Below are positions 29,670 to 60,205 of a DNA stretch of 64,000 nucleotides, in pieces (positions within the stretch are counted from its first letter, which is position 1; every line of letters starts with the position of its first letter). A program made the position numbers and the translations under genes. This stretch comes from a virus: positions 126,001 to 190,000 of IMG/VR virus record IMGVR_UViG_3300033146_004404; one strand, written 5' to 3'. The notes beneath the pieces are model-generated. The model did not search any database. It was not told the origin of the DNA and saw nothing but the letters and a program-made list of their open reading frames with translations.

Positions 29670-29691
29670 AAACACCCTTCGGGGTGTTTTT
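29670..29691 (+). terminator. Terminator with TTCG tetraloop after SSB gene
   Basis: AAACACCC-TTCG-GGGTGTTT followed by TT. It stands between ssb and uvsX and probably attenuates, giving more SSB than UvsX. Confidence 0.8.
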
Positions 29692-29704
29692 AAAAGAAGG
29701 TAAA

Positions 29705-32005: not shown

Positions 32006-34396
32006 TTGAAGCTTCTTATTACTGACTCTCACATAGCTTTAGGCGGAGTTCCGGATTTGTTGATTAAGGACATAAAAGCCGAGTTCACATTTAAGGACAT
32101 GTCTAAAACTATGACAAGAGGCGGGTTTGATAAGAGGAAAGTTAAAAATGTTTGCTTTGCTGGTCAAAAAGGCAAAGCCCTCGTTTTTAGAGCTGGGTTT
32201 TTAAAGGAGCTTCTGCTTTATTTAAAATCAAGTAATGTAAAACTTGAAGAAATTCAAGATAAAAGAACAAAACTAATAACAGAAAAATATACAGATGGAG
32301 AATTACGAAAGTATTTCAATCCTGATTTTAAATATGTAAAGCATCAAATAGGATCGCTTCAGGCAATGCTTAAGACAAATATTGGCATAATAAAAGCACC
32401 AACATCTGCAGGAAAATGTTTTGGCGAAAATACTGAAATTCTGATGTTTGATGGTTCTATAAAGAAAGTGCAAAAAGTAGTTGTAGGAGATACTATAATG
32501 GGTTGGGACTCAACTCCAAGAAAAGTTTTGTCTACAACTTCTGGAGTTGATACTCTATATAAAATTAAAAACTTAAAGGGTAATGGTTTTCATATAGTTA
32601 ACAGCTCTCACGTTATTACTTTAAAAGCTACAAGAACTTTATCAAAAGAGATAAAAAAGAATGATGTTATAGACATATCATTAAAAGAGTATCTTTTAAA
32701 GAATAAAGACTTTAAAAAAGTATTTAAGTTATTTCAAGAACCAGTTATTGCTTGGCCCGAAGCGAGTCATAAGCTAGATCCATATTTTCTTGGAGTGTGG
32801 CTTGGCGATGGTAGAAGTAACGCTCCTTCTATTACTTCTATAGATAATGAAATTATCGAGTATTTATATGAATATGCAGAATGTTTTAGCGACTTAAGTG
32901 TTTCTGTTTACGAGCAAGAAGATAGATGCAATAATTATGTATTGACAGGACGAAAGAAACAGAAGAATGCTATAACAGAAGAGTTAAGAAGGCTTAATCT
33001 CATTAATAATAAACATATCCCAAACGATTTCTTGATAGATAATTTTGAGAATAGACTAAAGTTACTTGCAGGATTATTAGATACAGATGGCTATTTAGAT
33101 AAAAAGAGAGGAGTGTTTGAGTTCTCTCAGAAAAATAAAAGATTGTCAAGCGAGGTTGTTTTTTTAGCTAAAAGCCTTGGGTTTTATGCTTCTATGAACA
33201 AAGGAAAAAAGAAGTCACAAAATGGAATTGAAGGGTTGTATTATTCATTGTATATAGCTGGAGACATTTGGAAAATACCGACGAAGATAAAAAGAAAACA
33301 GGCTTCCCCAAAGATTAAAAAAAAGCATGAGCTGAAAGATCCAACGAAAATAGGATTTAGCGTTAAAAAATTGGATGAAGGTGATTACTATGGATTTACT
33401 GTCGATGGAGATGGAAGATTTATGCTTGGCGACTTTATAGTTTCTCATAATACTGAAATAATAATTGCATATTTAATGATAACTAAGCTTCCTTGTTTAG
33501 TTTTAGTTGACAGTGTTTCTTTAGCGACACAGACAGTTAGAAGGTTTACTGAAGCTGGACTTAGTTGTGGAATTTGCACTGGAAAAGGAAAGATTGATGG
33601 AGATCATGTTGTTTCAACAATAGGCTCTTATAAAAAACTTGGAGATTTAACTAGGTATAAAACTGTTATTGTTGATGAGTGTCATATAGTTGGCAGCAAG
33701 AGCTTTCAAGAATTTTTTGAATTAACAAACTATCCTTATAGATATGGATTTTCAGCGACTCCGGACGGAAATGATAAGTATAGATTTGCTACTGTTAGGC
33801 AGCACATCGGCGATATCTTATTTGAGATCTATACAAAAGAGTTGATAGAGAATGATGTAATGGCTAAGCCTGTCATAAAATTCTTGACAGTGGATTGTAT
33901 AGCTACTCCTTCGTGGGATTCAGCGTATGATAAATGTATAGTTAATAATAAAAGAAGAAATGAAAAGGTTATAGAGATTGCTGAAGAGCATAAAAATGTT
34001 CCTGTTTTAATTTTATATAAGATTATCGAACACGGAAAGGTCTTGGGAAAAAAGATTCCTAATTCAGTTGTGTTGAGTGGATCTGATAGCAATGCTGTTA
34101 GAGAAGAAGCAATAGCAAAATTTATTTCTGGTGAAATAAAATGTTTAATTGCAAGTAACATTTTTAAACAAGGTATTTCAATCAGCAATATAGAAGTGCT
34201 GATAAATGTTTCAGGCGGCAAGTCTAAAATAGAAGTATTACAGAAAATAGGTAGATCGCTTAGACTAAGCAAAGGTAAAACAACTGCTTTAGTTTATGAT
34301 TTTATGGACTTAGGGAATAAGTTCACAGAGAAGCATTCATTGCAAAGAGAAGATCTTTATAAGAAGAATGGATTTACCGATATAGAGCATTTATAA
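32006..34396 (+). CDS. uvsW: UvsW-like DNA helicase interrupted by an endonuclease intein
   Basis: The 796-codon frame starts with TTG directly after the co-chaperonin stop. After removal of the 345-residue intein a helicase of about 451 residues remains. Motif I is APTSAGK/T (split by the intein), motif Ia LVLVDSVSLATQT, motif II VDECH, motif III GFSATP, then SNIFKQGISI and QKIGRSLRLS for motifs V and VI. T4 UvsW unwinds branched recombination intermediates and R-loops and moves the phage from origin- to recombination-dependent replication. The N-terminal 110 residues fit the UvsW DNA-binding domain. Function requires splicing. Confidence 0.9.
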   Translation: MKLLITDSHIALGGVPDLLIKDIKAEFTFKDMSKTMTRGGFDKRKVKNVCFAGQKGKALVFRAGFLKELLLYLKSSNVKLEEIQDKRTKLITEKYTDGELRKYFNPDFKYVKHQIGSLQAMLKTNIGIIKAPTSAGKCFGENTEILMFDGSIKKVQKVVVGDTIMGWDSTPRKVLSTTSGVDTLYKIKNLKGNGFHIVNSSHVITLKATRTLSKEIKKNDVIDISLKEYLLKNKDFKKVFKLFQEPVIAWPEASHKLDPYFLGVWLGDGRSNAPSITSIDNEIIEYLYEYAECFSDLSVSVYEQEDRCNNYVLTGRKKQKNAITEELRRLNLINNKHIPNDFLIDNFENRLKLLAGLLDTDGYLDKKRGVFEFSQKNKRLSSEVVFLAKSLGFYASMNKGKKKSQNGIEGLYYSLYIAGDIWKIPTKIKRKQASPKIKKKHELKDPTKIGFSVKKLDEGDYYGFTVDGDGRFMLGDFIVSHNTEIIIAYLMITKLPCLVLVDSVSLATQTVRRFTEAGLSCGICTGKGKIDGDHVVSTIGSYKKLGDLTRYKTVIVDECHIVGSKSFQEFFELTNYPYRYGFSATPDGNDKYRFATVRQHIGDILFEIYTKELIENDVMAKPVIKFLTVDCIATPSWDSAYDKCIVNNKRRNEKVIEIAEEHKNVPVLILYKIIEHGKVLGKKIPNSVVLSGSDSNAVREEAIAKFISGEIKCLIASNIFKQGISISNIEVLINVSGGKSKIEVLQKIGRSLRLSKGKTTALVYDFMDLGNKFTEKHSLQREDLYKKNGFTDIEHL
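32417..33451 (+). other. LAGLIDADG-containing intein in the UvsW P-loop
   Basis: Begins CFGENTEILMFDG and ends GDFIVSHN before Thr+1. The central endonuclease has FLGVWLGDGR and LLAGLLDTDGY as its two motifs, about 115 residues apart, so the intein may still be mobile. 345 residues. Insertion lies between Lys and Thr of the Walker A motif. Confidence 0.92.
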
Positions 34397-44785: not shown

Positions 44786-44808
44786 TCGTTTTCTCCATTT
44801 TTGTTTAT

Positions 44809-44843
44809 ATTACCTTTACTATTACCTTTACTATTATCTTTAC
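44809..44843 (-). promoter_or_regulatory. Triple tandem late promoter motif
   Basis: Minus-strand GTAAAGATAAT (44833-44843), GTAAAGGTAAT (44821-44831) and GTAAAGGTAAT (44809-44819), each 12 bases apart. The outermost abuts the early promoter's TTGACA on the other strand. Confidence 0.65.
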
Positions 44844-44872
44844 TTGACAAAAAAAGAATAATATGTTATAAT
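44844..44872 (+). promoter_or_regulatory. Early promoter for dnaE N-terminal gene
   Basis: TTGACA 44844-44849, 17-base spacer, TATAAT 44867-44872, extended TGT. An AAAAGGAG ribosome site follows. Confidence 0.9.
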
Positions 44873-44890
44873 TAATTAAAAGGAGCAAAA

Positions 44891-46180
44891 ATGGCATATT
44901 CACATCTCCACGTCCATTCCCATCTTGGGAGTCAGCTTGATGGAATCGGAACATCGGAACAATACGCTAAATTAGCAAAAGAAATGGGACATCCATCTCT
45001 AGCAATAACAGATCACGGAAAAATGAACGGTCATTACGATCACTTCCTAGCTTGTAAAAAACATGGGATTAATCCTATATTTGGAGTTGAAGCATACGTT
45101 GAATTCGAGCTAGAACGATTTGAAGAAAAGAATGGAAAACAGAAAAGAGTTAGAAATAAGAATATGCACTTAGTCCTCCTTGCAAAGAACGAAGTCGGTT
45201 ATAAAAATCTTCTTAAGCTGAACTATAAATCTATGTCTGATGAAAAACATTTCTATTACAAGAATCATATAACCATAAAAGAACTCTTTGAAAACAAAGA
45301 AGGGATAATCGTAGGAACAGCTTGTATGGGATCTCCGTTCGCAAGACTATATAGAGACAAAAAAATAGTAGAAGCAGAGAAGTTATTTAAACTATTTAAG
45401 AATCAATTCGGTGAAGACTTCTATGCTGAGTTACAAATAAATGAAATAGATCATTCCATTGATAACTTTGAAGAAGGACAGAAATCTGTAAACGCATTTA
45501 TTTTGAGGTTAGCTAAAGAGTATGATGTTCCAGTTGTGCTTACTGGTGACGTTCATTATTCAAAAAAGGGGATGGCAAAAATACAAACACTAGCAATAGC
45601 AATCAGTAGAAAAGTAACTCTTGATGAACTTGATTGGGAACTTGAAGGAAAGAGTTTGTTTTATATGGACATTCCTGACTTTAAAAAATTCAATGAAGAT
45701 TGGGGTTATGGATATACAAATCAGCAGATCGAAGAATGGTGTGAGAACACTCAGCTTATTGCTGATAGATGTGACTTTCAATACAGAGAGAGGAATAGAG
45801 TTCTCCTTCCAACGTTTTCGGAAGATGATGATGCTTTATTAATAAAAGAAAGTATGAAAGGATTAGCTGAGAAATTAAAAGTTGAAGACTTTAAACATGC
45901 TCCAAAAGAATATAGAGAAAGATTAGCGAAAGAACTTGAGATCATATTAAGGAAGGGGTTTGCTTCATATATTATGATATTATGGGATGTGTTTAATTTT
46001 GCAAAAGAAGAAGATATAATGCGAGGTCCCGCTCGGGGCAGCGGTGGTGGTTCATTACTTTTGTATGCTCTTGATATAACAACATTAGATCCAATAAAAT
46101 ATGAACTCATCTTTGAACGTTTCTTGTCGGATCAGAGATCCGTAGATGTTGTTTATGATTGGTTTGGTGAAATAAAATAA
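44891..46180 (+). CDS. dnaE: DNA polymerase III alpha (DnaE), fragment 1: PHP domain and N-terminal palm
   Basis: A 429-residue piece of a C-family replicative polymerase. HLHVHSHLGSQLDG (H5, H7, H9) and ITDHGKMNGHYD belong to the PHP domain, GVEAYVE and TGDVHYSK follow, and GPARGSGGGSLLLYALDIT with FERFL is the start of the palm. The chain stops after VDVVYDWFGEIK, just before the catalytic Asp motif, which is on fragment 2 (47770). It carries no intein half at its end, so it probably joins the rest non-covalently. A zinc-ribbon gene and a Pif1-like helicase gene lie in the gap between fragments. Confidence 0.9.
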   Translation: MAYSHLHVHSHLGSQLDGIGTSEQYAKLAKEMGHPSLAITDHGKMNGHYDHFLACKKHGINPIFGVEAYVEFELERFEEKNGKQKRVRNKNMHLVLLAKNEVGYKNLLKLNYKSMSDEKHFYYKNHITIKELFENKEGIIVGTACMGSPFARLYRDKKIVEAEKLFKLFKNQFGEDFYAELQINEIDHSIDNFEEGQKSVNAFILRLAKEYDVPVVLTGDVHYSKKGMAKIQTLAIAISRKVTLDELDWELEGKSLFYMDIPDFKKFNEDWGYGYTNQQIEEWCENTQLIADRCDFQYRERNRVLLPTFSEDDDALLIKESMKGLAEKLKVEDFKHAPKEYRERLAKELEIILRKGFASYIMILWDVFNFAKEEDIMRGPARGSGGGSLLLYALDITTLDPIKYELIFERFLSDQRSVDVVYDWFGEIK

Positions 46181-46191
46181 AGGAAGGTATA

Positions 46192-46359
46192 ATGGAAAAA
46201 GAATACACAGTGAAATGCGTTGAGTGTGGCAATAAATTTAAGGCAAGGTTTGAAGCGGATAAGCTTGATGGGTATGAAACATTAGCTTATTGCACAGAGT
46301 GTAATGACGTTAAAGAAGTTACTTTATCTGGAGCTTTTCAAGCAAAGAAAAAATCTTGA
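46192..46359 (+). CDS. Small zinc-ribbon protein
   Basis: A 55-residue protein with CVECGNKF and YCTECN, two CxxC pairs 29 residues apart, as in a four-cysteine zinc ribbon. It ends in KKKS. Ribosome site AAGGAAGG. It lies 11 bases after dnaE fragment 1 in the same early transcript, and its TGA stop is part of the next promoter's TTGACA. It may bind DNA or RNA polymerase, but nothing decides this. Confidence 0.65.
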   Translation: MEKEYTVKCVECGNKFKARFEADKLDGYETLAYCTECNDVKEVTLSGAFQAKKKS

Positions 46360-46384
46360 CAAAAAAAGAATAATATGCTATAAT
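46356..46384 (+). promoter_or_regulatory. Early promoter for the Pif1-like helicase
   Basis: TTGACA 46356-46361, 17-base spacer, TATAAT 46379-46384, extended TGC. Predicted start near 46391, one base before the helicase ATG. Confidence 0.88.
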
Positions 46385-46391
46385 TGAGTAT

Positions 46392-47708
46392 ATGGAAGAA
46401 ACAAAAGAAAAAATAAATGATATTATCAACACTTACTTAGATGGCTTTCAAGACCTTGGTTATGAAATAACGGAAGATATAAAGAAAGCTTTGTTGTTCG
46501 CAGAATTTTCAAAAAAGAATTTAATAATTTCTGGTTCAGCGGGAACTGGAAAATCAACATTTATAGAACTATTTAAGAAAAATTCAAAAAAGTCAGTCGT
46601 AACCCTAGCCCCCACTGGGGTTGCGGCTGTTAACGCAAACGGAGTAACCATACATTCGTTTTTTAAAATGGCAATAGGTATAGCAAACAAATATTCAGTT
46701 TCAAAAGAAGCTAAAGAAGTAGTTAATAAAGTCGATGTTATTATCATTGATGAAATCTCAATGGTTAGAGCAGATCTTATGGATGCTGTAGATTCACATT
46801 TAAGAATCCTTACAGGAAACGCTGATAAGCCTTTTGGTGGAATTAAGATAGTTGCTGTTGGAGATTTATTTCAATTGCCTCCAGTAGTTCAAAGCGGAAC
46901 TCCGGACTTTGCTTATATTAGAGATAACTTTTATTCAAAGTGGTTTTTTAGTGCGCCGGAGGTCGGTGAATTTAACGTAGTTGAATTAAAGAAGATCTTC
47001 CGTCAAAGCGAAGAACAGTTCATTAATACTTTAAATAGAATTCGTGTTGGAAAGCAGTCATGGGATGATCTCAAACTAATAAATACAAGAGTAGTAACAG
47101 AAGAGGAGTTTGGTAAAGACGGAGAAGATTATATTTATTTAGCGTCTACTAATAAGACAGCTGATAACGTAAACTCCGAGAGGTTAAAGAAAATAAATGA
47201 ACCATCGTTCTTTTTTCACTCATCTACTAAGGGCGATTACCCAAAAGGGTCTATGCCAGCTCCGGAAATAATTGAGTTAAAAAAGGGCTCTCAAGTAATG
47301 ATGCTTAGAAATATAGCAGCACACAATCTTTATAACGGCCAGGTTGGAAGAGTAATTGCTTTAGGTGAATACTTTATCAAAGTTAAATTTGGGAAAGCAG
47401 ATTATGTAATTAATAAAGAAATCTGGTTGAACAATGAATACTCGTTAGTTGATGGAAAAATACAACTGAAAGAACTTGGTTCATATACTCAGTATCCTTT
47501 AAAACTTGCTTATTCAATAACCATTCATAAAAGTCAAAGTAAAACTTATGAGAAGATTTTTATTGATTTAGGTGGCGGTGCTTTCAGTGCCGGACAGACT
47601 TATGTTGCTTTATCAAGATGCAAGACTCTTAATGGAATTGGCCTTAAGTATAAAATTGAAAAAAGAGATATAATAGTTGATAGAGTTTTAAAAGAGACTT
47701 TTCTTTGA
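46392..47708 (+). CDS. Pif1/RecD-type SF1B helicase
   Basis: A 438-residue helicase. Motif I GSAGTGKST (48-56), Ia TLAPTGVAAV, II IIDEISM, III GDLFQLPPV, IV LKKIFRQSE, V YSITIHKSQSKTYEKI and VI YVALSRCKTLNGI. This set is Pif1/RRM3-like; such enzymes move 5' to 3' and clear blocks at the fork, as Dda does in T4. The ATG coincides with the predicted start of transcription and has no ribosome site, so the message seems leaderless. It sits between two dnaE fragments, and its TGA stop lies within the next promoter's -35. Confidence 0.9.
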   Translation: MEETKEKINDIINTYLDGFQDLGYEITEDIKKALLFAEFSKKNLIISGSAGTGKSTFIELFKKNSKKSVVTLAPTGVAAVNANGVTIHSFFKMAIGIANKYSVSKEAKEVVNKVDVIIIDEISMVRADLMDAVDSHLRILTGNADKPFGGIKIVAVGDLFQLPPVVQSGTPDFAYIRDNFYSKWFFSAPEVGEFNVVELKKIFRQSEEQFINTLNRIRVGKQSWDDLKLINTRVVTEEEFGKDGEDYIYLASTNKTADNVNSERLKKINEPSFFFHSSTKGDYPKGSMPAPEIIELKKGSQVMMLRNIAAHNLYNGQVGRVIALGEYFIKVKFGKADYVINKEIWLNNEYSLVDGKIQLKELGSYTQYPLKLAYSITIHKSQSKTYEKIFIDLGGGAFSAGQTYVALSRCKTLNGIGLKYKIEKRDIIVDRVLKETFL

Positions 47709-47733
47709 CAGAAAAAGAATAATTGAATATAAT
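47705..47733 (+). promoter_or_regulatory. Early promoter for dnaE fragment 2
   Basis: TTGACA 47705-47710, 17-base spacer, TATAAT 47728-47733. The spacer has more changes than in the other copies and the TGn is absent. A GAAGGAG ribosome site follows. Confidence 0.75.
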
Positions 47734-47769
47734 ATAATATAATAGACTTATTACCGAAGGAGATAAAAA

Positions 47770-48672
47770 TTGAAGACTTGGACTGAGCTTAAAGATTTTT
47801 GTGAAAAAAGCGAACGTTTTTTAGACTTAAGCGAAGAAGAAAAAAAAAGATATAAAAAGGAAATTGCTGTAGCAAAAAGATTTTATTCCAATAAAAGAAA
47901 TCTTTTTGACGAACTTCAAATAAAAAAGGATAGAATTGATAATAGATACATAATTCCTTTTTTATTAAAGCTTACTGACTGTATTGCCAACAAAAGACCT
48001 GCTTATATTCAGGTAAAGTCAGGAGCTTCAGGAGGGATAGACATAGACACCGATTGGCAGGGTGATGGTAGAGAGAAAATCTATAATTATCTCGTTGAAA
48101 AATATGGAATAGAAAGAGTTCTTCATGTAGGAACTTTTTCAGCTCTTGGGCCGGCATCAGCAGCAAAAGATGTTTTAAGAGCAAATAAAATTGACTTTGG
48201 TAAATCAAATGCCTTCACTAAAGTTCTTGAAAAGCAAGAAAGTTGGGAAGAGAATCTTGAGAGAATTAAAGGAACAGATCAAGCCAACTGGAGATTCTAT
48301 GAAGAGAATAAAGAAGTTCTTGAAGATGTTCCTCACTTAATTGGAAAGATAAGACAGTGTTTGCCTTGGAATCAAGATGTAGATATCATTGACGAATATG
48401 GAGTTAAAACAAAAAAGCTCATAAAGTTTATAGATCCAGCCCAGGATTATATTTCTTATATGGATAAAGATGGAAATAAACAATATACTAAAAATTATGA
48501 GGTATTCCCTTCTGGAAAGAAGAAGATATATGAAATAACTACCTCAAAAGGAAAAAAGATAAGAGCGTCTGCTAATCATAAATTTTTTTTAAGAAGTGGT
48601 GAAATTAAAAGATTAAAAGATTTAAAGAATGACGATGAAATCATCATTGATAGTAATTCCGCCTCCGTGTAA
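47770..48672 (+). CDS. dnaE: DnaE fragment 2a: catalytic palm joined to N-terminal half of a split intein
   Basis: A 300-residue product starting at TTG. Residues 1-196 are DnaE: IPFLLKLTDCIANKRPAYIQ, SGASGGIDIDTDW (catalytic D91/D93), VGTFSALGPASAAKDVLRA, ending HLIGKIRQ. Residues 197-300 are an intein N-half, CLPWNQDVDIIDEYG with block B KGKKIRASANHKFF, ending SNSASV. Its partner half is at 49524. Joined, the extein reads IGKIRQ-SGKHAGGIVIS, the expected continuous DnaE sequence. The stop codon falls within the late motif of the hairpin that controls the HNH gene between the two halves. Confidence 0.9.
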   Translation: MKTWTELKDFCEKSERFLDLSEEEKKRYKKEIAVAKRFYSNKRNLFDELQIKKDRIDNRYIIPFLLKLTDCIANKRPAYIQVKSGASGGIDIDTDWQGDGREKIYNYLVEKYGIERVLHVGTFSALGPASAAKDVLRANKIDFGKSNAFTKVLEKQESWEENLERIKGTDQANWRFYEENKEVLEDVPHLIGKIRQCLPWNQDVDIIDEYGVKTKKLIKFIDPAQDYISYMDKDGNKQYTKNYEVFPSGKKKIYEITTSKGKKIRASANHKFFLRSGEIKRLKDLKNDDEIIIDSNSASV

Positions 48673-48697
48673 AGGTAATGTAAACACGGAGGTGGAA
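48657..48697 (+). promoter_or_regulatory. Anti-Shine-Dalgarno hairpin with late promoter motif in its loop
   Basis: Arms 48657-48670 (TTCCGCCTCCGTGT) and 48684-48697 (ACACGGAGGTGGAA) pair over 14 positions with one G-U. The 3' arm contains the GGAGG site of the HNH gene. GTAAAGGTAAT (48669-48679) runs through the loop; a start about six bases later would give a message lacking the 5' arm and so open for translation. Confidence 0.8.
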
Positions 48698-48702
48698 TTT
48701 AT

Positions 48703-49572
48703 ATGAAGTGCTTAATATGTGGAGAAGAAGTAGAGAGAAGTAGTTTTCATTTTCATTTAAAAAAACATAATATGAAAATGAAAGAGTATTATGTAAAATT
48801 CAATTTTGACTTTACGAAAAAAGATTATTTAGAAAATGAATATTGTAAAAATGAAAAATCACTGAAACAGATAACAAAAGAATGTGAAGAGAAATATAAT
48901 ATTTCAAATTTAAAAAGTACTGTACTTGATTTTGCTAAAGAATTTTATATAAAAAAAAGAACTATTTCAGGTGCTGGAAAATTGTATTTTGAAAATAATG
49001 AAATTTGGAATAAAGGGTGTACGAAAAAAGATAATGCTTCTGTAGCTTTATATTCAAAAAAGAAAAAAGAGCTTTATAAAAAAGTAAGAAAAAAACTAGA
49101 AAGTTTATCTATAAGTGAATTACTAAAGTTTAATATTCAACAGAATAAAAAAATTAGAAACATACTAAGAAAAAAGCTTATAGAAAAACAAGATAATATC
49201 TGTCCTATTTGCGAAAGCAGTTTAACAAATTTAGATAAAAGATTGCAACATATCCATCATATAGACAGAGACAATTCAAATGATACAGAAGAAAATTTAA
49301 TCGTTTTGTGTGCAAGCTGTCATACAAAATTATCTGGGCACAAACACAGACTTAAAGAACTTGATTTTATATTATCTTATGATGACTTTGTTAATAATTT
49401 AGAACTTGTTAGATATGAAATATCTAAAATAAAAAAAAATAAAGAAGATATGATGTGTCAATTAGAAAGCGTTGATAAATTTGATAAAAAAAAGTATTAT
49501 GAAAATATAAAGGAGAATGGAAAATGCTCGATAAACATATCAAAATTAAAACTGACAGAATTTATTCAATAG
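48703..49572 (+). CDS. HNH homing endonuclease lying between the split-intein halves
   Basis: A 289-residue protein. An N-terminal zinc finger (CLICGEEVERSSFHFHLKKH) is followed by a helical DNA-binding region and a C-terminal HNH domain at about 165-215: ICPICESSLTN, RLQHIHHIDRDNSND and NLIVLCASCH with all metal and catalytic residues. It is a free-standing gene located where an intein's own endonuclease domain would sit, and its last 49 bases overlap the C-intein gene. Its ribosome site is hidden in a hairpin in read-through transcripts and exposed in late ones. It probably cuts the intein-free dnaE allele. Confidence 0.88.
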   Translation: MKCLICGEEVERSSFHFHLKKHNMKMKEYYVKFNFDFTKKDYLENEYCKNEKSLKQITKECEEKYNISNLKSTVLDFAKEFYIKKRTISGAGKLYFENNEIWNKGCTKKDNASVALYSKKKKELYKKVRKKLESLSISELLKFNIQQNKKIRNILRKKLIEKQDNICPICESSLTNLDKRLQHIHHIDRDNSNDTEENLIVLCASCHTKLSGHKHRLKELDFILSYDDFVNNLELVRYEISKIKKNKEDMMCQLESVDKFDKKKYYENIKENGKCSINISKLKLTEFIQ

Positions 49573-49964
49573 TTGAAAAAGAAGAAGAAGAAACATATGA
49601 TATTCAAAACTTTCAAGATGATTGCTTTTTAAAAGAACCAAATTTTTTTGCTGATGGTTTTCTCGTTCATAATTCTGGAAAGCATGCTGGTGGAATCGTA
49701 ATTAGTGACAAACCAATTTATAACTATATTCCTGTTGATAGAGTTCAGGGAGAAGTTGTTACAGCATTTCCAGAAAGTGGAAGCAACACTGTTCTTGATG
49801 AGATCGGTATAATAAAATATGATATTTTAGGTATATCAATCTTGGATGTTATATCAGAAGCTATAGGTATGATAGACGAAGACATTTATTTAATTGAAGA
49901 TGACGATGGAATTCAGAAAGCGGTCCCTGCATCTTACATAGATAACATAATAAAAAAACTTTGA
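49524..49964 (+). CDS. dnaE: DnaE fragment 2b: C-terminal half of split intein plus palm continuation
   Basis: A 146-residue product. Residues 1-50 are the C-intein: MLDKHIKIKTDRIYSIVEKE, then TYDIQNF and FFADGFLVHN before Ser+1. Residues 51-146 are DnaE: SGKHAGGIVISDKPI, IPVDRVQGEVVT, and IGIIKYDILGISILDVI, where D100 corresponds to the third catalytic aspartate. It joins fragment 2a by trans-splicing. The chain stops at IIKKL, and DnaE resumes 7.9 kb downstream at 57857. AAGGAG lies eight bases before the ATG. Confidence 0.9.
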   Translation: MLDKHIKIKTDRIYSIVEKEEEETYDIQNFQDDCFLKEPNFFADGFLVHNSGKHAGGIVISDKPIYNYIPVDRVQGEVVTAFPESGSNTVLDEIGIIKYDILGISILDVISEAIGMIDEDIYLIEDDDGIQKAVPASYIDNIIKKL

Positions 49965-49976
49965 GGTAATTTATTC

Positions 49977-51488
49977 GTGACTGATTTTGCATTATTGAAC
50001 TATAAAAAAAGAGAAAAAAAGAAAAAAATCATTGATGGCTTTTTATTAAATGCAAAGCAGGACGATAAAACACTCTTTAAGTGCTTGGTGTGTGGAAAAG
50101 AAACAAGTAAGACAATCTCTGCTTTGATTAAAAGAGGTATTGATTATAAAAAAATAGACGTAGAAAATAACGATACGATTTTTATGTGTCGAAAACATTC
50201 TCAAGAAGCTATAACTGAAAAGAAATATGGAGTTAAGAATAATTTTCAAAATCCAGCTTCAATAAAAAAGATCAAGAAAAAGAGAGAAAAAAAAAGAATA
50301 GAAAGTGGAGATCCTCTCTATTTTTTAAATCAAGGTGATCTTATCGTTTTTACTTGTGAAGTATGTGGAAAGAAAACATCCGTTCAGAAAAGAAAATACA
50401 CTAGTAATTTATGCAGAGAATGCAAGATAAAAAAGGCTAATAGAGAGAAAATTCTTCCTGTGATATTAAAAAGGCTTAAAGGCAACAATATTGAATTGTT
50501 AAAACCTTATTCTAACCAGAGAGAGTTAGAAGAAAACGTTCTTTATGATTTTAAGTGCTTAATTTGCAATAATACCTTTAAGGATCATCTTCACTCTCAT
50601 ATTCCAAGATGTCCTACTTGCTATCCAAAATATTCTTCAATTGGTGAAAAAGAAATAAAAGTTTTTATAGAGTCTTTAGGTTTTGATGTCATAGAAAACG
50701 ACAGAAAGATTCTTAGTGGCCTAGAGTTAGATATTTATATTCCGGATAAAAAAATAGCAATAGAGTTTAATGGTCTTTATTGGCATAGTGAGCAGAAAGG
50801 AAAAGATAAAAACTACCATTTAAACAAAACATTAAAATGTGCAGAAAAAGAAATTCAGTTAATTCACTTCTTTGAAGATGAATGGTATAATAAAAAAGAA
50901 ATAGTGAAATCCATTATTGCAACAAGATTGGGGATAGTAGGTAAAAGAATTTATGCTAGAAAGTGTATTATAAAAAATGTGACAAATAAAGAGGAAAGAA
51001 GATTCTTAGAAGAAAATCATATTCAGGGATATTATCCTTCTTCTATTAAGCTAGGCTTATACTATGAAGAAGAATTAGTTTTAATTTTAACTTTTGGAAA
51101 ATCACGATTTAGTAATCACGATTTTGAGTTAATAAGATTTGCTAATAAATTAAATTCTTCTGTGGTTGGTGGATTTTCTAAGCTTTTAAAATCTTTTAGA
51201 AAAGATAATAAAGGAAGCTTAATAACCTTTTCAGAGAGAAGGCTGTTTTCAGGAAATGTTTATGAGAAGAGCGGTTTCTCGTTTTTAAAAACGACCTTAC
51301 CAAATTATTACTATGTAGACGAAAACTATAATAAGAGATTTAATAGAATGAAATTTCAAAAGCATAAATTAAAGAATTTGTTAAAAGAGTACAATGAAGA
51401 ATTAACAGAGAAGGAAAATATGATAGTTAATAACTATGATAGAATTTGGGACTGTGGAAATAATTCTTTTGAAATAAAAAAACTTTAA
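49977..51488 (+). CDS. EDxHD (Vsr-like) homing endonuclease with zinc-finger repeats
   Basis: A 503-residue protein starting GTG. The N-terminal half has several Cys pairs (CLVCGKET, CEVCGKKT, CRECK, CLICNN, CPTC), probably zinc-binding DNA-recognition modules. The catalytic core at about 215-300 reads IGEKEIKVFIESLGFDV, LELDIYIPDKKIAIEFNGLY, WHSE and LIHFFEDEW, matching the Vsr-like EDxHD family found beside fractured phage genes. The last 150 residues are a further conserved domain (GYYPSSIKLGLYYEEELVLI). It stands exactly where dnaE breaks for the second time, 12 bases after the 2b stop. Confidence 0.82.
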   Translation: MTDFALLNYKKREKKKKIIDGFLLNAKQDDKTLFKCLVCGKETSKTISALIKRGIDYKKIDVENNDTIFMCRKHSQEAITEKKYGVKNNFQNPASIKKIKKKREKKRIESGDPLYFLNQGDLIVFTCEVCGKKTSVQKRKYTSNLCRECKIKKANREKILPVILKRLKGNNIELLKPYSNQRELEENVLYDFKCLICNNTFKDHLHSHIPRCPTCYPKYSSIGEKEIKVFIESLGFDVIENDRKILSGLELDIYIPDKKIAIEFNGLYWHSEQKGKDKNYHLNKTLKCAEKEIQLIHFFEDEWYNKKEIVKSIIATRLGIVGKRIYARKCIIKNVTNKEERRFLEENHIQGYYPSSIKLGLYYEEELVLILTFGKSRFSNHDFELIRFANKLNSSVVGGFSKLLKSFRKDNKGSLITFSERRLFSGNVYEKSGFSFLKTTLPNYYYVDENYNKRFNRMKFQKHKLKNLLKEYNEELTEKENMIVNNYDRIWDCGNNSFEIKKL

Positions 51489-51499
51489 AGGAAGTAAGC

Positions 51500-51724
51500 A
51501 TGAGCAAGAAAAAGAAAACTGTCAAAGAAGAGATTGCCTCTAAAAATGAAGTAGAAGTAGAAGTGAAAGCTCCTGAAGTAGAAGTAGAAGTAGAAGTGAA
51601 AGCTCCTGAAGTAGAAGTAAAAGTGAAAGCTCCTGAAGTAGAAGTAAAAGTGAAAGCTCCTGAAGTAGAAGTGAAGCAGACGCCAAAGTCTAATTACGAA
51701 ATTAGAACTGGAGTAAAGAAGTAA
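51500..51724 (+). CDS. Repeat protein with APEVEVKVK units
   Basis: A 74-residue protein, MSKKKKTVKEEIASKNEVEV then about four near-identical units of 9-11 residues (KAPEVEVKV), encoded by 27-33-base tandem DNA repeats, and a basic end (NYEIRTGVKK). The sequence is low-complexity and probably extended or beta-stacking. Unit number will vary by slippage. A ribosome site AAAGGAAG lies upstream, and a strong terminator overlaps its stop. Function unknown. Confidence 0.6.
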   Translation: MSKKKKTVKEEIASKNEVEVEVKAPEVEVEVEVKAPEVEVKVKAPEVEVKVKAPEVEVKQTPKSNYEIRTGVKK

Positions 51725-51758
51725 AAAAAGAGTTGGTTTAAAAACCAACTCTTTTTTT
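51723..51758. terminator. Terminator with 17-bp stem
   Basis: A-run AGAGTTGGTTT pairs with AAACCAACTCT T-run; symmetrical, so active in either direction. The next early promoter starts two bases later. Confidence 0.9.
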
Positions 51759-51760
51759 AC

Positions 51761-51789
51761 TTGACAAAAAAAGAACAATATGGTATAAT
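51761..51789 (+). promoter_or_regulatory. Early promoter for the 72-residue protein
   Basis: TTGACA 51761-51766, 17-base spacer, TATAAT 51784-51789, extended TGG. AAGGAG follows before the TTG start. Confidence 0.88.
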
Positions 51790-51808
51790 GTAATATAAGG
51801 AGAAAAAA

Positions 51809-52027
51809 TTGGCTATAAAAAACAAAGAAGTAATGGGGCTAATTAACCAAAAAACAAAAGAGATGGAAAAGCATCTTAATAGTATTGAAGAAGAATTAAA
51901 AAAAGATGAAGATCGATTTAGTAAAGCAGCTGTGTCATTAAGTGTTGGTAAAGTTATGAAACTTCATCAAGATATAGCTTTTTTTCTCGGCGTTCATGAT
52001 GACAATCCAAAATACCTAGGCAACTAG
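51809..52027 (+). CDS. Small helical early protein
   Basis: A 72-residue protein starting TTG behind AAGGAG. Predicted as two helices (INQKTKEMEKHLNSIEEELK and FSKAAVSLSVGKVMKLHQDI), with an Asp/Asn-rich end. No family recognised. A single-gene early unit between two terminators. Small early proteins of this kind often modify host enzymes, but nothing here says so directly. Confidence 0.6.
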   Translation: MAIKNKEVMGLINQKTKEMEKHLNSIEEELKKDEDRFSKAAVSLSVGKVMKLHQDIAFFLGVHDDNPKYLGN

Positions 52028-52056
52028 AGTTTATCGTGCTAACTCTAAATTTTTTT
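52025..52056 (+). terminator. Terminator after the 72-residue protein gene
   Basis: TAGAGTT / AACTCTA stem, nine-base loop, AA then seven T. It starts in the stop codon. Confidence 0.8.
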
Positions 52057-52061
52057 ATGAC

Positions 52062-52072
52062 GTAAAGATAAA
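52062..52072 (+). promoter_or_regulatory. Late-type motif (GTAAAGATAAA)
   Basis: GTAAAGATAAA ends three bases before the ATG at 52076, so any transcript from it would start at or after the ATG. Confidence 0.45.
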
Positions 52073-52075
52073 GTA

Positions 52076-53001
52076 ATGAATAAATTAACCATTAATGAAG
52101 CAAAAAAGAGATTTAAAGAAAAGCACGGCGATAAATATAGATATTTTAATTTTTGTAGATATGAAGGAACAAGCCAAAAAATTAAAATAATATGTCCTAT
52201 CCATGGAGAGTTCTTTCAGAGTGTAAAAATGCACCTTGCTGGTCAAGGCTGTAGATTATGTAGTTATGAAAAAAGAGCAAGTCAATCAAAAAAAACAAGC
52301 CTTGTTTTTATAACTGAATCCAAAGAAGTTCATGGTGACGAATACGACTATTCAAAGGTCTTTTATTTAAGGAAAGACAAAAAGGTAAAAATAATATGTC
52401 CTATTCATGGAGTTTTTTTGCAAAGACCTGATGTTCATTTAAATGGAGCTGGATGTCCTACTTGCGGAAGAATAAAAAGTGACTTAAGTAGAAGAAAAAC
52501 TACAGAAGATTTCATTAATCGTTCTGTAAAAGTACACGGTAATAAATACAACTACGCTAAAACAAAATATGTTACAGCAAAAGAAAAAGTGTTAATATGT
52601 TGTAAAAAGCACGGAGAATTTTTACAAAGACCAAATAACCACTTAAACGGAGCTGGATGTCCTGTTTGTTGTGAGAGCAGGGAGAGAAGGAAATAGAGGA
52701 AATTCTTACAGAAAGAAAAATTGCTTTTACAAGACAAAAACTTTTTAAGGGTTGTAATGGAGTAAAGAGAGCTCTGCCTTTCGATTTCTTTTTAGAAGAG
52801 TTAAACGTTTGTATAGAATACGACAGAGTTCAGCATTATAAGCCAATAGCTTATTTTGGAGGTTCCGAAAAACTAAACAAGACCCAGTAAGCAGATAAAA
52901 TAAAAAATCTTTTTTGTAAAAAAGAAAAAATAAAATTAATACGAATTCCTTATTATGAATATAAGAATATAGAGGAGTTTCTTATGGAGAAAATAAACTA
53001 A
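52076..53001 (+). pseudogene. Frameshifted and nonsense-mutated homing endonuclease
   Basis: The first 206 codons carry three repeats of about 60 residues with F-x-x-K-x-x-x-x-H-G-x-x-Y-x-Y and C-P-x-H-G motifs (IICPIHGEFFQS, IICPIHGVFLQR, CKKHGEFLQR, each with GxGCPxC), a DNA-binding array of phage homing endonucleases. The frame then stops at 52696. In another frame the sequence continues EIEEILTERKIAF, LPFDFFLEELNVCIEYDRVQ HY, FGGSEKLNKTQ, stop at 52888-52890, then KIKNLFCKKEKIKLIRIPYY, ending 53001: the nuclease domain. Restoring one G in the GGG at 52679-52681 rejoins the frames as ESRGEKEIEEIL. So two lesions inactivate the gene. Confidence 0.85.
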
Positions 53002-55826: not shown

Positions 55827-56210
55827 ATGCTAGACATAGATAAAGAAGTGCTGAATGAGAAGTATAATAATGGAGACATGGAATACTTTTTTAGTAAAGC
55901 AGAAAAAATTGCTGACTTCTTACTAACTAGAAACTATAAAGTTTTTGATAGCGAAAAAAGAGCCGATATGGTTCAAGAGTGCCTTGAAAATCTTTGGAAG
56001 AAACAACTCCAAGGAAAGATAGATGGATCTAAAAACCTAATGGCTTTCATTTGGAAAAATTCAGATTTTAGGATAAAAGAGATATTCAGAAAAGAGAATA
56101 ACAGGAACAGAATTGCTCCTTTTATTTCATACGATAATGAAGAATTTGAGTTTCTTAAGGGAATCGGCAGCGAGAAGTATAATAAAGAATTCTTTGAAAT
56201 GCTTGCTTGA
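55827..56210 (+). CDS. Sigma-factor-like protein, probable late sigma (T4 gp55 type)
   Basis: A 127-residue protein resembling sigma70 region 2 only: FSKAEKIADFLLTRNYKVF, RADMVQECLENLWKKQLQG, and AFIWKNSDFRIKEIFRKENN, matching the promoter-melting and -10 recognition helices. T4 gp55 is likewise a short sigma with little beyond region 2, and it recognises a lone -10-like box. Here that box would be GTAAAGATAAT. The ATG has AAGGGA. It is co-transcribed with the metallopeptidase-like gene and lies just before the densest cluster of these motifs. The sigma call is from pattern, without a search. Confidence 0.65.
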   Translation: MLDIDKEVLNEKYNNGDMEYFFSKAEKIADFLLTRNYKVFDSEKRADMVQECLENLWKKQLQGKIDGSKNLMAFIWKNSDFRIKEIFRKENNRNRIAPFISYDNEEFEFLKGIGSEKYNKEFFEMLA

Positions 56211-56212
56211 TC

Positions 56213-56320
56213 TTATTCTCTCCTTGTAAAGATAAAGGAGAGAATAATTATTTTCTCCCTGTAAAGATAATATAAAGGAGAGAATAATTATTTTCTCCCT
56301 GTAAAGATAATATAAAGGAG
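56213..56320 (+). promoter_or_regulatory. Triplicated late promoter hairpins, including a perfect 40-bp tandem duplication
   Basis: Three late motifs at 56226, 56261 and 56301, each in the loop of a stem formed by TTCTCC-type and GGAGAA-type arms. The first has a perfect 13-bp stem (56213-56225 with 56235-56247). Bases 56241-56280 and 56281-56320 are identical. The third hairpin hides the AAGGAG site of the gene at 56326. Confidence 0.8.
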
Positions 56321-56325
56321 AAGCT

Positions 56326-57027
56326 ATGACCTTAAGAAAGAAGATAGAAATGACTTCTATCAATGAAGAAAATGAGTATTTAGTAGAAGGAATTCGATTC
56401 TTCAAAACTTCAAAAAAAATCACTTCATATATAAAAAAAATAGAAAAAAAGAATACCAACGGATCTCTTGATGGCCTAATAGAGCGACTTGAAAGAGTAT
56501 CTAAAAACTTTGAAGTCGCCGAAAGAATGCACCAAACTGGTAGAAAAACTGAAGCAAAACAATTATATTTACAGTACAAAAAAGATAATATTTTATTAAT
56601 GACTGCTCTAAATAAAGAATCAACTAAGAAAATATTAGTAAGACTAGGAATAGGATTAATTGTATTACAAGTTCTTTTAAGTATGACTACCGGAATTGGT
56701 TTATATGAAAGATTATTTATGAGAGGAGCATCGACAGCAGCAAGAATGGCTGGAAGATCAGGAGCTTTAGTTTCAACTGAAGTTCTTAGCGATAATCTTC
56801 CTGGCTCATCAGGGGCTCCTTCTTTAGAATCCCTTGACGCATCGCAACTCGTACTAAACAATGAAATAAAAAACTTAAAGAAAGATGTAGGTTTTTCTAA
56901 AGATGCAATAAAAGACAAAGCTAAAGAACTTGCAGCTCTTGAGAAGTTTGAAAAAGCACTAAAAAAGTTTAATAAAGCAAATGGAAAAGGACTAAGCATC
57001 TTAGATAAGATATTAGGTAGAAAATAA
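56326..57027 (+). CDS. Capsid-targeted-like membrane protein, first of a tandem pair
   Basis: A 233-residue protein. The leader MTLRKKIEMTSINEENEYLVE has a likely cleavage before G22 (LVE-G). The mature part begins GIRFFKTSKK, followed by a charged helix (about 30-100), one clear hydrophobic segment (105-126; LVRLGIGLIVLQVLLSMTTG), a Ser/Ala-rich region and a C-terminal basic coiled coil. It is a clear paralogue of the next gene: both share FFKTSK, I-K-K-x-E-K-K-N and the spacing to the hydrophobic segment. I infer an ejected internal protein. Translation is likely limited to late transcripts by the hairpin over its ribosome site. Confidence 0.65.
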   Translation: MTLRKKIEMTSINEENEYLVEGIRFFKTSKKITSYIKKIEKKNTNGSLDGLIERLERVSKNFEVAERMHQTGRKTEAKQLYLQYKKDNILLMTALNKESTKKILVRLGIGLIVLQVLLSMTTGIGLYERLFMRGASTAARMAGRSGALVSTEVLSDNLPGSSGAPSLESLDASQLVLNNEIKNLKKDVGFSKDAIKDKAKELAALEKFEKALKKFNKANGKGLSILDKILGRK

Positions 57028-57856: not shown

Positions 57857-60205
57857 ATGAGAATACTAAGAAAAATAACAAAACGAGAATTGAAAGATCA
57901 TCTGTATGAACTTAATACAGATGATCTTAGTCTTTATAAGGAAGCTAATAACCCTAATTCAATTGGAATCTTCCAATTGAATGGCGCTCTTGCTAGTGAG
58001 ATTATAAAGAAAGTTAGACCTTCATGCTTCGACGAAATAAATGCTGTGTCTGCATTCGCCAGACCAGGAACCTCAAGCTTCGTAGAACAATACGTAGAAA
58101 ACAGAGAAACAAAAAAATCTCCTTATTCAAATCAAGTAGCTGACTTGCTTACTGAAACAAACAGTATTTGTTTATATCAGGAACAAGCCATGTCTATTTT
58201 TAACAAGATAGGTGGGTTCTCACTCGAAGAGTGCGACGGAATCAGAGGTCTTATGAAAAAGCTTGGAAAGGCAGATAAGAAAAAAGAAGATCTTGATAGA
58301 TGGAATGTTATCATAGCTCAGTTTAATAAAGGCGCAGTTGAAAAAGGCATGTCAATCAAAGATGCTAAAATGATAGCAGCCGACCTTTTGAAAATGAGTT
58401 CTTATAATTTTAACAAGTGTTTCTCTGGCGACATGGTTATAGATAAAGATAATTCTACTGGCTGGGTTCCTACTATAGAAGAAATGTATCTTACAAGAAA
58501 CGATAGAGAGTGGGCCAAAAATAACGGGCATGATTTTCTTCATTATAAGTATAAAACAAAGGGGTATGTCTCTGGATTTTCTTTACAGGAAGATGGAAAG
58601 CTCTATAAGAATAAAATAAAAAATATTTATTTTCAAGGTAAAAAAGATGTTTATAGAATAACTCTTGAAAACGGAAAGATGATAGAAGTCACTGATAATC
58701 ATAGGTTTCCGGTAATAATTGAAGGCGAAGTAGAATATAAAAGTATTGATTCTGGATTATCTATCAATGACTCTCTTTTATCTAACGATGGATATGAGAT
58801 AACGGATTTTAAAGGAAAATATAATTTTACAAAAAAAAATAATGAAACAAGAAAATTTAAAACTGCAGTTTACTATGGAAGTGGAGAAAAAAATACTGGT
58901 TATATAAATGGTGAGTCTATTAAATTTAAAGAGAATAGAAAAATTCTTCTAGAACAAGCTGAAAATATTTGTCCTATTTGCGGAAATAATATAAATAGAA
59001 AAGAATGCCATCATATCGATGGCAATAGATACAATAACGAACTTGAAAATCTTATAGTCCTTTGTCCTTCTTGCCATAAAAAAGAAGATTATAAAATTGG
59101 CAGAAATAGAAAAGGAGATAAGGGGAAAATTACATCTTTATCTAAGATCGTTTCCATTGAAAAGATCGGTGAAAAAAATACGTATGATGTCGAAATGAAC
59201 GCACCTTTTCATACAGTTTCTGTAAATGGAATAGTTGCTCACAATAGCCACAGTACAGCATATGCTTATATAGCGGCACAGACACTTTACCTCTCATATT
59301 ATTTCCGTAAGTATTTTTATGCTTCTGTTCTTCACTATGAAGTTGGAAGAGATAAGTACTTAATAGAGAGATTGAAAGCGGTTAAGAAACAAGGCTTTAA
59401 CATTCTTCCTCCAAACATCAATAAGTCAAAAGTAGCAATCTCTCCAACTGGAGATGACAATATTGTTTTTGGCTTATTCGATATTAAAGGAGTTGGTGAA
59501 GTTCCTGCAACTACAATAGTTTCACTACAGCCATTCGGTTCATTTGAAGATTTCTTAATAAGAATTCTTGGGCAGAAAGTGTCAGTAACGGTAATAAAAG
59601 CACTGATTGGAGTTGGAGCTTTTGATGAGATTTATAACCTTGATAGAAAAAGACTGATCGAAACTTTTGATATTTATTGGAAAAATAAAAAGAGTACGAA
59701 AGTACCAGAAAAGCTTTTAGCTGTCTGGGAGGCCGCTCAGGAAGAAATCAGGGCAATTCCTGACATGACCGCTTCCATTGAAGAACTTAGAGATTTAGAA
59801 AAGAAGTACTTTGGGTTCAATTTTTTCTTGAGTCCATTCAACGAAAAATTTATTGATGCTGTTGATTTAATGGTAACTAAGGGAATGATCTATAGAAACT
59901 TTGAAGTTATTAAAACTGGATCTATGAAGGTTCCAGCAATAGTTAGCGGCATAAGAATACTTAATGACAGGAACGGAAATGAGATGGCATTTCTTGAGCT
60001 TGAGGATATTGAAGGTGAATCAATAAGTATTCCTATCTTTCAAAGTTTCTGGAAAGTATTGAAAGCAAGATTTATTCAGGGAAAAGTTCATATGATAAAT
60101 CTTTATTACAATAAAGAACAAGAGCAGATAATGTTTGGAAGTAAAAGGTTCATAAAGAAAGAAACAGAAATATCAAGACTTGTGAAACGATTAGATAATC
60201 TTTGA
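57857..60205 (+). CDS. dnaE: DnaE fragment 3: fingers to C-terminus, with an HNH-bearing intein
   Basis: A 782-codon frame; after removal of a 276-residue intein about 506 residues remain. IGIFQLNGALASEIIKKVRP and INAVSAFARPG belong to the fingers; CLYQEQAMSIFNKIGGFS and GIRGLMKKLGK follow; YNFNK-SHSTAYAYIAAQT spans the intein site; KKQGFNILPPNINKS and FGLFDIKGVGE lie in the C-terminal fingers/HhH part, and the end (VSGIRILNDRNGNEMAFLEL) is an OB domain. It completes the C-family polymerase begun at 44891 and 47770. No ribosome site precedes the ATG; the message appears leaderless. Confidence 0.9.
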   Translation: MRILRKITKRELKDHLYELNTDDLSLYKEANNPNSIGIFQLNGALASEIIKKVRPSCFDEINAVSAFARPGTSSFVEQYVENRETKKSPYSNQVADLLTETNSICLYQEQAMSIFNKIGGFSLEECDGIRGLMKKLGKADKKKEDLDRWNVIIAQFNKGAVEKGMSIKDAKMIAADLLKMSSYNFNKCFSGDMVIDKDNSTGWVPTIEEMYLTRNDREWAKNNGHDFLHYKYKTKGYVSGFSLQEDGKLYKNKIKNIYFQGKKDVYRITLENGKMIEVTDNHRFPVIIEGEVEYKSIDSGLSINDSLLSNDGYEITDFKGKYNFTKKNNETRKFKTAVYYGSGEKNTGYINGESIKFKENRKILLEQAENICPICGNNINRKECHHIDGNRYNNELENLIVLCPSCHKKEDYKIGRNRKGDKGKITSLSKIVSIEKIGEKNTYDVEMNAPFHTVSVNGIVAHNSHSTAYAYIAAQTLYLSYYFRKYFYASVLHYEVGRDKYLIERLKAVKKQGFNILPPNINKSKVAISPTGDDNIVFGLFDIKGVGEVPATTIVSLQPFGSFEDFLIRILGQKVSVTVIKALIGVGAFDEIYNLDRKRLIETFDIYWKNKKSTKVPEKLLAVWEAAQEEIRAIPDMTASIEELRDLEKKYFGFNFFLSPFNEKFIDAVDLMVTKGMIYRNFEVIKTGSMKVPAIVSGIRILNDRNGNEMAFLELEDIEGESISIPIFQSFWKVLKARFIQGKVHMINLYYNKEQEQIMFGSKRFIKKETEISRLVKRLDNL
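58418..59245 (+). other. Intein with embedded HNH endonuclease in DnaE
   Basis: Begins CFSGDMVIDKDNSTGW and ends VSVNGIVAHN before Ser+1. Block B is KMIEVTDNHRFPVI. The inserted nuclease reads ICPICGNNI, CHHIDGNRYNN and NLIVLCPSCHKK, an HNH fold instead of the usual LAGLIDADG. The site FNK/SHSTAY lies very near the known cyanobacterial DnaE intein site. 276 residues. Confidence 0.92.

What the first reader, a model, noticed from the sequence alone, without database searches (positions are those of the whole stretch)
48358..49673. Split intein separated by a free-standing HNH endonuclease gene
N-half: 104 residues starting CLPWNQDVD. C-half: 50 residues ending FLVHN-S. The HNH gene (48703-49572) lies between the halves, where an ordinary intein holds its endonuclease domain. 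This looks like an intein whose endonuclease has been freed as its own gene, an intermediate in the birth of split inteins. The short C-half and Ser+1 make it a candidate for efficient trans-splicing.
Basis: partly seen in the sequence, partly recalled or inferred. Interest (0 to 1): 0.85.

Follow-up and report, generated by a model that had tools for sequence, protein, structure and literature searches.

The report
Split intein with inserted homing endonuclease
In a 201-kb phage genome the DNA polymerase gene is cut in two by a selfish DNA-cutting gene, but each stump carries half of a self-splicing intein that should rejoin the protein, and the selfish gene appears to be kept silent until late infection by an RNA hairpin built around the phage's late promoter.

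Summary
Two related phages have the uninterrupted gene (IRQ|SGKHAGG), so splicing would restore DnaE exactly. Reading frames exclude a cis product, and no intron was detected. This is the known 'fractured gene' arrangement (Dassa et al. 2009), at a DnaE site where I found no other intein. Two relatives have their own fractured DnaE at two other sites, with other endonuclease types. New here is a likely control device: a 16-bp hairpin (48655-48699) hides the HNH ribosome-binding site and holds a putative late promoter, GTAAAGGTAA; the motif GTAAAGRTAA occurs 28 times in the genome (about 3 expected) and precedes tail-sheath and tail-fibre genes. Its TAA-AGG-TAA also supplies the N-half's stop codons. 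A nearby gene models as a sigma-factor region 2, T4 gp55 among the matches. This is the T4 I-TevI / Aeh1 mobE logic inside a split intein. Trans-splicing, cleavage and late expression are inferred.

The parts
44891..46180 (+). DnaE piece 1: PHP domain and N-terminal polymerase part (TIGR00594 positions 1-395)
47705..47733 (+). Consensus sigma-70-type (early-class) promoter TTGACA-17-TATAAT upstream of the DnaE N-half gene
   Evidence: 12 of 12 matches; one of a recurrent class in this genome
47770..48357 (+). DnaE piece 2, N-extein (catalytic IDIDTDW to ...GKIRQ)
48358..48669 (+). N-half of split intein, 104 aa, Cys1; SANH in block B
   Evidence: PF14890, TIGR01445; sequence
48655..48699 (+). 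RNA hairpin, 16 bp with one G-U, 13-nt loop; sequesters the SD of the HNH gene (GGAGG 48688-48692) and contains the N-half stop codons
   Evidence: MFE -26.9 kcal/mol, z -6.75, 0 of 200 shuffles; SD paired with probability 1.0
48668..48678 (+). Putative late promoter TGTAAAGGTAA; reads TAA-AGG-TAA in the N-half frame
   Evidence: motif 10 vs 0.2 expected in the window, 28 vs 2.5-3.5 in the genome, upstream of structural genes
48703..49572 (+). Free-standing HNH homing-endonuclease-like gene, 289 aa, HNH core intact (CPIC...HIHHID...ENLIVLCASCH)
   Evidence: PF01844, PHROGs HNH families
49524..49673 (+). C-half of split intein, 50 aa, ends ADGFLVHN; ORF starts inside the 3' end of HNH with its own SD AAGGAG
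   Evidence: TIGR01443; sequence
49674..49964 (+). DnaE piece 2, C-extein (SGKHAGGIVIS...), then stop
   Evidence: PF07733 207-260; alignment
57857..60205 (+). DnaE piece 3 (fingers, HHH), with a cis-intein containing an HNH core related to that of 48703-49572
55827..56210 (+). Candidate late sigma factor (sigma region 2-like fold), 127 aa
   Evidence: AlphaFold2 block-mean pLDDT above 90 over residues 11-90; Foldseek top hits sigmaE region 2 and T4 gp55 7d7c_F

Best explanation
This is a 'fractured gene': a phage DnaE gene split by a trans-splicing intein with a free-standing HNH homing endonuclease gene between the halves. Early in infection a read-through transcript (consensus promoter at 47705) is translated into DnaE-N::IntN, which stops at TAA-AGG-TAA, and into IntC::DnaE-C from its own ribosome-binding site. 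The intein halves associate and splice, joining ...GKIRQ to SGKHAGG... and restoring this section of the polymerase. In that transcript the HNH ribosome-binding site is locked in a 16-bp hairpin, so little or no nuclease is made. Late in infection a phage sigma factor starts transcription from GTAAAGGTAA inside the hairpin. The short RNA lacks the 5' arm, the ribosome-binding site is free, and HNH is made; it would cut intein-less dnaE copies of co-infecting phages near the site and spread the whole cassette. Shown by sequence: parts, empty site, frames, motif enrichment, predicted hairpin. Inferred: splicing, cleavage, timing.
For: Intein and HNH models pass curated cut-offs. The uninterrupted site IRQ|SGKHAGG is present in L014 and L015, about 81-83% identical exteins. 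The halves lie in different frames, with 55 stops in the C-half frame, so only trans-splicing can rejoin them. No intron family is found. The hairpin has z -6.75 and hides the SD. The motif GTAAAGRTAA occurs 28 times vs 2.5-3.5 expected and precedes tail-sheath, tail-fibre and head-tail adaptor genes. The gene at 55827 models as sigma region 2, with gp55 7d7c_F at probability 0.99. The same layout with the same motif is found in L015 (10719-13529) and L031 (732-3429) at two other DnaE sites. Precedent for the hairpin plus late promoter: I-TevI, segB, Aeh1 mobE (PMC2988022).
Against: No splicing or cleavage data. Block B has Ser for the usual Thr (SANH), and block F has an insertion and lacks the usual His (KEPNFF for DNHNFF), so activity could be reduced. 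There is no acidic/basic charge pairing of the halves as in cyanobacterial DnaE inteins. The sigma-fold hits are below formal significance (best E 0.07). In G003 the motif is not enriched (3 vs about 1.8 expected), although one copy precedes its endonuclease gene. The L015 hairpin encloses the SD in its loop and pairs the start codon rather than the SD.
Confidence: 0.82

Rival explanations
1. The endonuclease was freed: an ancestral cis-intein with an internal HNH domain gained stop codons (with the late promoter) between IntN and HNH and a frame change before IntC. The reader's direction.
For: HNH is in the same frame as the N-half, separated only by TAA-AGG-TAA and a short leader. Its only relative in the four records searched is the HNH core of the cis-intein in DnaE piece 3 (51% over 56 aa).
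Against: Only the HNH core is shared; the other parts match a family of phage HNH endonucleases over residues 3-260. GC is 23% vs 29.5% (IntN) and 33% (exteins). In L015 and L031 the endonuclease is out of frame with the N-half and of other families. No unsplit intein at this site was found. Same frame has a 1 in 3 chance.
Confidence: 0.25
2. The intein halves are dead or inefficient and the polymerase works as separate subunits held together non-covalently, like Aeh1 NrdA or the other two DnaE breaks in this phage.
For: DnaE in this lineage already works in three separate pieces without inteins at breaks 1 and 3, conserved in L014, L015 and L020. Block B Thr is Ser and the block F His is missing.
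Against: Cys1, block B His, penultimate His, Asn and Ser+1 are all kept; models pass cut-offs; the break falls inside the conserved palm motif RxSGKHAGG.
Confidence: 0.12
3. The region 48358-49673 is removed at the RNA level as an intron, or the halves are joined by recoding.
For: Relatives do carry a group-I-like intron in the same gene, at another position.
Against: No Rfam intron in 44800-53000; the residues at both ends are intein motifs that translate in frame with the exteins; halves in different frames with many stops.
Confidence: 0.02
4. The hairpin is only a terminator or chance structure, and HNH is expressed by translational coupling to the N-half rather than from a late promoter.
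For: The N-half stop codon lies in the hairpin, so a terminating ribosome would open it.
Against: No U-tract; the motif in the hairpin is strongly enriched genome-wide and sits 9-48 nt before starts of structural genes.
Confidence: 0.2

Closest known systems
Fractured genes with split inteins (gp41-1, NrdJ-1, IMPDH-1 type loci; Dassa et al. 2009, doi 10.1093/nar/gkp095, cited in PMC7090010 and PMC11766414; paper itself not held)
   Same: Conserved phage enzyme gene broken by split intein halves with a free-standing endonuclease gene in between (definition recalled from the paper, not read here).
   Different: HNH endonuclease, DnaE site IRQ|SGKHAGG, intein sequence not close to any retrieved one; hairpin plus late promoter read out in detail here.
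Aeh1 mobE in nrdA and T4 I-TevI / segB regulation (PMC2988022)
   Same: HNH or GIY-YIG homing endonuclease gene inside or beside a phage gene; hairpin hides the RBS in early RNA; late promoter inside gives RNA without the hairpin.
   Different: Here the host protein halves carry intein halves; the late motif is GTAAAGRTAA, not TATAAATA; the phage is not T4-like by its polymerase (DnaE).
Fractured helicase of Pectobacterium phage Ymer (OP748252.2) and relatives
   Same: IntN-bearing gene, free-standing endonuclease gene, IntC-bearing gene, with overlapping ORFs.
   Different: LAGLIDADG endonuclease; helicase host gene; endonuclease ORF overlaps both halves.
Cyanobacterial split DnaE inteins (Npu, Ssp)
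   Same: Split intein in DnaE, class 1 chemistry, N-half of about 102-104 aa.
   Different: Different DnaE site (palm, not ...CFNKSHSTAY), Ser+1 rather than Cys+1, halves adjacent with an endonuclease gene between.

Membership tests
Fractured gene (Dassa 2009) | Conserved enzyme gene broken in two relative to uninterrupted homologues | tested here: met
   Empty site in L014 and L015
Fractured gene (Dassa 2009) | Split-intein N and C halves at the break | tested here: met
   PF14890, TIGR01445, TIGR01443 above cut-off
Fractured gene (Dassa 2009) | Free-standing endonuclease gene between the halves | tested here: met
   HNH ORF 48703-49572, own start and SD
Fractured gene (Dassa 2009) | Vsr-like (EDxHD) endonuclease, found in about half of loci (recalled) | tested here: not met
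   HNH instead; not a defining feature of all loci. Another phage homing-endonuclease gene (phrog_3339) lies next door at 49977
Class 1 trans-splicing intein | Cys1, block B His, penultimate His-Asn, Cys/Ser/Thr +1 | tested here: met
   C1, SANH, HN, S+1; Thr of TxxH is Ser
Class 1 trans-splicing intein | Splicing in trans | not testable with these tools
   needs co-expression assay
HNH homing endonuclease | Intact HNH active site | tested here: met
   PF01844 22.4 bits, CxxC...HIHHID...CxxCH
HNH homing endonuclease | Cuts the intein-less dnaE site | not testable with these tools
   needs cleavage assay
T4-type hairpin/late-promoter control of homing endonucleases | RBS sequestered by a stable hairpin in read-through RNA | tested here: met
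   predicted fold
T4-type hairpin/late-promoter control of homing endonucleases | Late promoter placed so that late RNA lacks the 5' arm | tested here: inconclusive
   motif enriched and before structural genes; start site not mapped
Group I/II RNA intron (alternative to an intein) | Rfam intron match | tested here: not met

The most novel reading that the evidence does not exclude
In this phage lineage the late promoter itself makes split inteins. Its core GTAAAGRTAA reads as tandem stops (TAA-AGR-TAA), so gaining it between IntN and an endonuclease both ends the N-half and gives the nuclease its own late, hairpin-masked expression. Three related phages show this promoter motif before the endonuclease in fractured DnaE genes at three different sites, with three different endonucleases; in two of the three the motif supplies the N-half stop.
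Probability: 0.3. Interest if true: 0.7.

Novelty: new member of a known kind. Interest (0 to 1): 0.5.

Why it matters
It adds a DnaE-site split intein with an empty-site control and two sister loci, giving a natural series for studying how split inteins arise. The promoter-in-hairpin control, if confirmed, shows the T4-type solution for taming homing endonucleases in a DnaE-encoding large phage and links promoter gain to gene breaking. The intein pair is also a candidate for protein ligation.

Tried and rejected
RNA intron: no Rfam match. Cis read-through: frames and stops exclude it. Unsplit intein at the same site: a junction pattern (VHN-x-xx-HA[AG]G) gave 0 hits in viral contigs and 2 hits in genome contigs, both on the opposite strand of unrelated genes; the pattern only sees inteins ending in VHN. 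HNH homologues: none in viral contigs or phage records. Charge pairing of the halves: not seen. AlphaFold2 of HNH alone: useless (pLDDT 38). More DnaE relatives: the alignment search returned only the same three phages plus one distant contig. HMM evidence for a late sigma factor: only a weak hit (phrog_1740, E 0.36), so the structural match is what supports it. The paper of Dassa et al. 2009 is not held; its content is cited from memory and through papers that cite it.

Full report
Observation. The reported sequence is exactly as described. ORF 47770-48672 ends in a 104-residue stretch beginning CLPWNQDVD; ORF 49524-49964 begins with 50 residues ending FADGFLVHN, followed by SGKHAGG. The N-half scores above the curated cut-offs of TIGR01445 and PF14890, the C-half above TIGR01443, and the flanks match DNA_pol3_alpha on consecutive parts of the profile (103-193 and 207-260). 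The HNH ORF 48703-49572 has an intact HNH core (CPIC...HIHHID...ENLIVLCASCH) and matches many phage HNH families.

Empty site. Two related phage contigs (L014, L015) carry the same gene without interruption...VPHLIGKIRQ|SGKHAGGIVVS..., with exteins about 81-83% identical to the window's. A third, more distant phage (L020) is also uninterrupted there (GKVRSNGMHAGG). Removal of the intein at Cys1 and Asn154 gives exactly the uninterrupted protein.

Level of joining. N-half and C-half are in different frames, with 55 stops in the C-half frame between 48358 and 49523, and Rfam finds no intron in 44800-53000. Trans-splicing of two polypeptides is the only joining route that the sequence supports. 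Catalytic positions Cys1, block B His (SANH), penultimate His, Asn and Ser+1 are present. The unusual points are Ser for Thr in block B, an insertion in block F and the loss of its His, and the lack of charge pairing. Closest solved inteins by sequence are DnaB, gp41-1 and DnaE mini-inteins. I rate splicing as likely but not shown.

The gene context. DnaE of this phage is in three pieces: TIGR00594 positions 1-395 at 44891-46180, about 400-574 in the fractured piece, and 572-1017 at 57857-60205. Breaks 1 and 3 carry no intein, and the same breaks are seen in L014, L015 and L020. Piece 3 has a cis-intein with an internal HNH core, 51% identical over 56 aa to the free-standing HNH and its only relative in the four phage records searched. 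The phage carries further cis-inteins in a RecA-like protein, a helicase and a ribonucleotide reductase.

Sister loci. L015 has its own split intein in DnaE piece 3 (EE|C...HN|CDSIRG) with a phrog_655 homing endonuclease gene between the halves. L031 (same phage as L020) has one in piece 1 (GRG|C...HN|SFCGS) with an endonuclease-like gene of another kind between them. So three related phages have fractured DnaE at three different sites. A similar layout with a LAGLIDADG gene occurs in cultured Pectobacterium phages (Ymer). The arrangement is therefore a recurrent known kind: the 'fractured genes' of Dassa et al. 2009 (not held; recalled, and cited by PMC7090010, PMC11766414, PMC6801210).

Control device. 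Between the N-half stop and the HNH start is a 16-bp hairpin (48655-48699; -26.9 kcal/mol, z -6.75, 0 of 200 shuffles) that pairs the Shine-Dalgarno GGAGG fully with sequence upstream of the putative late start (probability 1.0). Its 5' arm and loop contain TGTAAAGGTAA. The motif TGTAAAGRTAA occurs 10 times in the window (0.2 expected); GTAAAGRTAA occurs 28 times in the 201-kb genome (2.5-3.5 expected), and 9 and 7 times in G002 and G001, but is not enriched in G003 (3 vs 1.7-1.9). Most copies lie on the sense strand 9-48 nt before start codons, including those of genes matching tail sheath, tail fibre and head-tail adaptor families. I read it as a late promoter. A second class, TTGACA-17-TATAAT, is consensus-perfect upstream of the DnaE N-half gene (47705-47733) and recurs in this region. 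A conserved 127-aa gene at 55827 gives a confident helical model over its first 90 residues whose best structural matches are sigma region 2 domains, including T4 late sigma gp55 (7d7c_F, probability 0.99, E 0.2) and a sigmaE region 2 bound to GTAAAA (probability 1.00, E 0.07); the E-values are not significant alone but all top hits agree.

The logic matches T4 I-TevI, segB and Aeh1 mobE: a hairpin hides the RBS in read-through RNA, and a late promoter placed in the hairpin makes an RNA without its 5' arm (PMC2988022). In L015 and L031 the same motif also lies in a hairpin loop immediately before the endonuclease gene; in L031 the SD is paired, in L015 the start codon is.

Promoter as stop. 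GTAAAGRTAA reads TAA-AGR-TAA in one frame. Its first TAA closes an upstream open frame of at least 60 codons at 7 of 47 motif sites, against 2.7% of all TAA triplets in the genome. Two of the seven are the N-intein halves of the window and L015. Gain of this promoter would thus break the gene and free the nuclease at one stroke. This is attractive but untested.

Direction of evolution. For invasion of an intein by a free-standing endonuclease: own RBS, hairpin and promoter, near full-length similarity to a phage HNH endonuclease family, low GC (23% vs 33%), different endonuclease families in the sister loci out of frame with their N-halves. For freeing: same frame as the N-half, and an HNH core shared with a cis-intein of the same phage. 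I favour invasion about 3 to 1.

Novelty. A new member of a known kind. The site, the intein pair and the sister series are new to me, and the late-promoter reading is a concrete, testable addition. The scans cover IMG/VR, GTDB species genomes and INPHARED; metagenome contigs could not be scanned.

Noticed in passing
L014 8266-8465; L015 about 8269-8467; L020 about 5500-5700: A roughly 200-nt insertion in dnaE between SGASGG and IDIDTDW (the catalytic Asp codons), absent from the window, removable to an exact in-frame join. It reads like a small group I intron (exon GGUGGU pairs with internal GCCACC, U-G at the 5' site, final G), though Rfam did not call it.
   Followed up: partly
window 44891-46180, 47770-49964, 57857-60205: DnaE is encoded in three separate pieces, the first break lying next to the catalytic PDIDxDF motif, without inteins at breaks 1 and 3; conserved in three relatives.
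   Followed up: partly
window 55827-56210: Conserved 127-aa protein whose model resembles sigma region 2 and T4 gp55: candidate late sigma factor.
   Followed up: yes
genome-wide, e.g. window 34467, 54315, 56226-56310, 60207: GTAAAGRTAA: putative late promoter motif, 28 copies in 201 kb; three tandem copies with hairpins before the gene at 56326 and three before the gene at 44785 on the minus strand.
   Followed up: yes
window 46356, 47705, 44844, 51761: Consensus-perfect TTGACA-17-TATAAT promoters sharing an extended sequence (GAATAATATGGTATAATTA), probably the early promoter class.
   Followed up: partly
window 49977-51488: Homing endonuclease of another family (phrog_3339, E 3e-117) directly after the DnaE C-extein; absent from L014.
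   Followed up: partly
L016 2840-5998 (minus strand), window 29684-31669 and 32006-34396: Cis-inteins: two in ribonucleotide reductase, both with HNH-like inserts, one in the Walker A motif of a RecA-like protein, one with LAGLIDADG in a helicase.
   Followed up: partly
L056 3521-6631 (Pectobacterium phage Ymer): Helicase gene fractured by a split intein with a LAGLIDADG gene overlapping both halves, annotated as separate genes in the record.
   Followed up: partly
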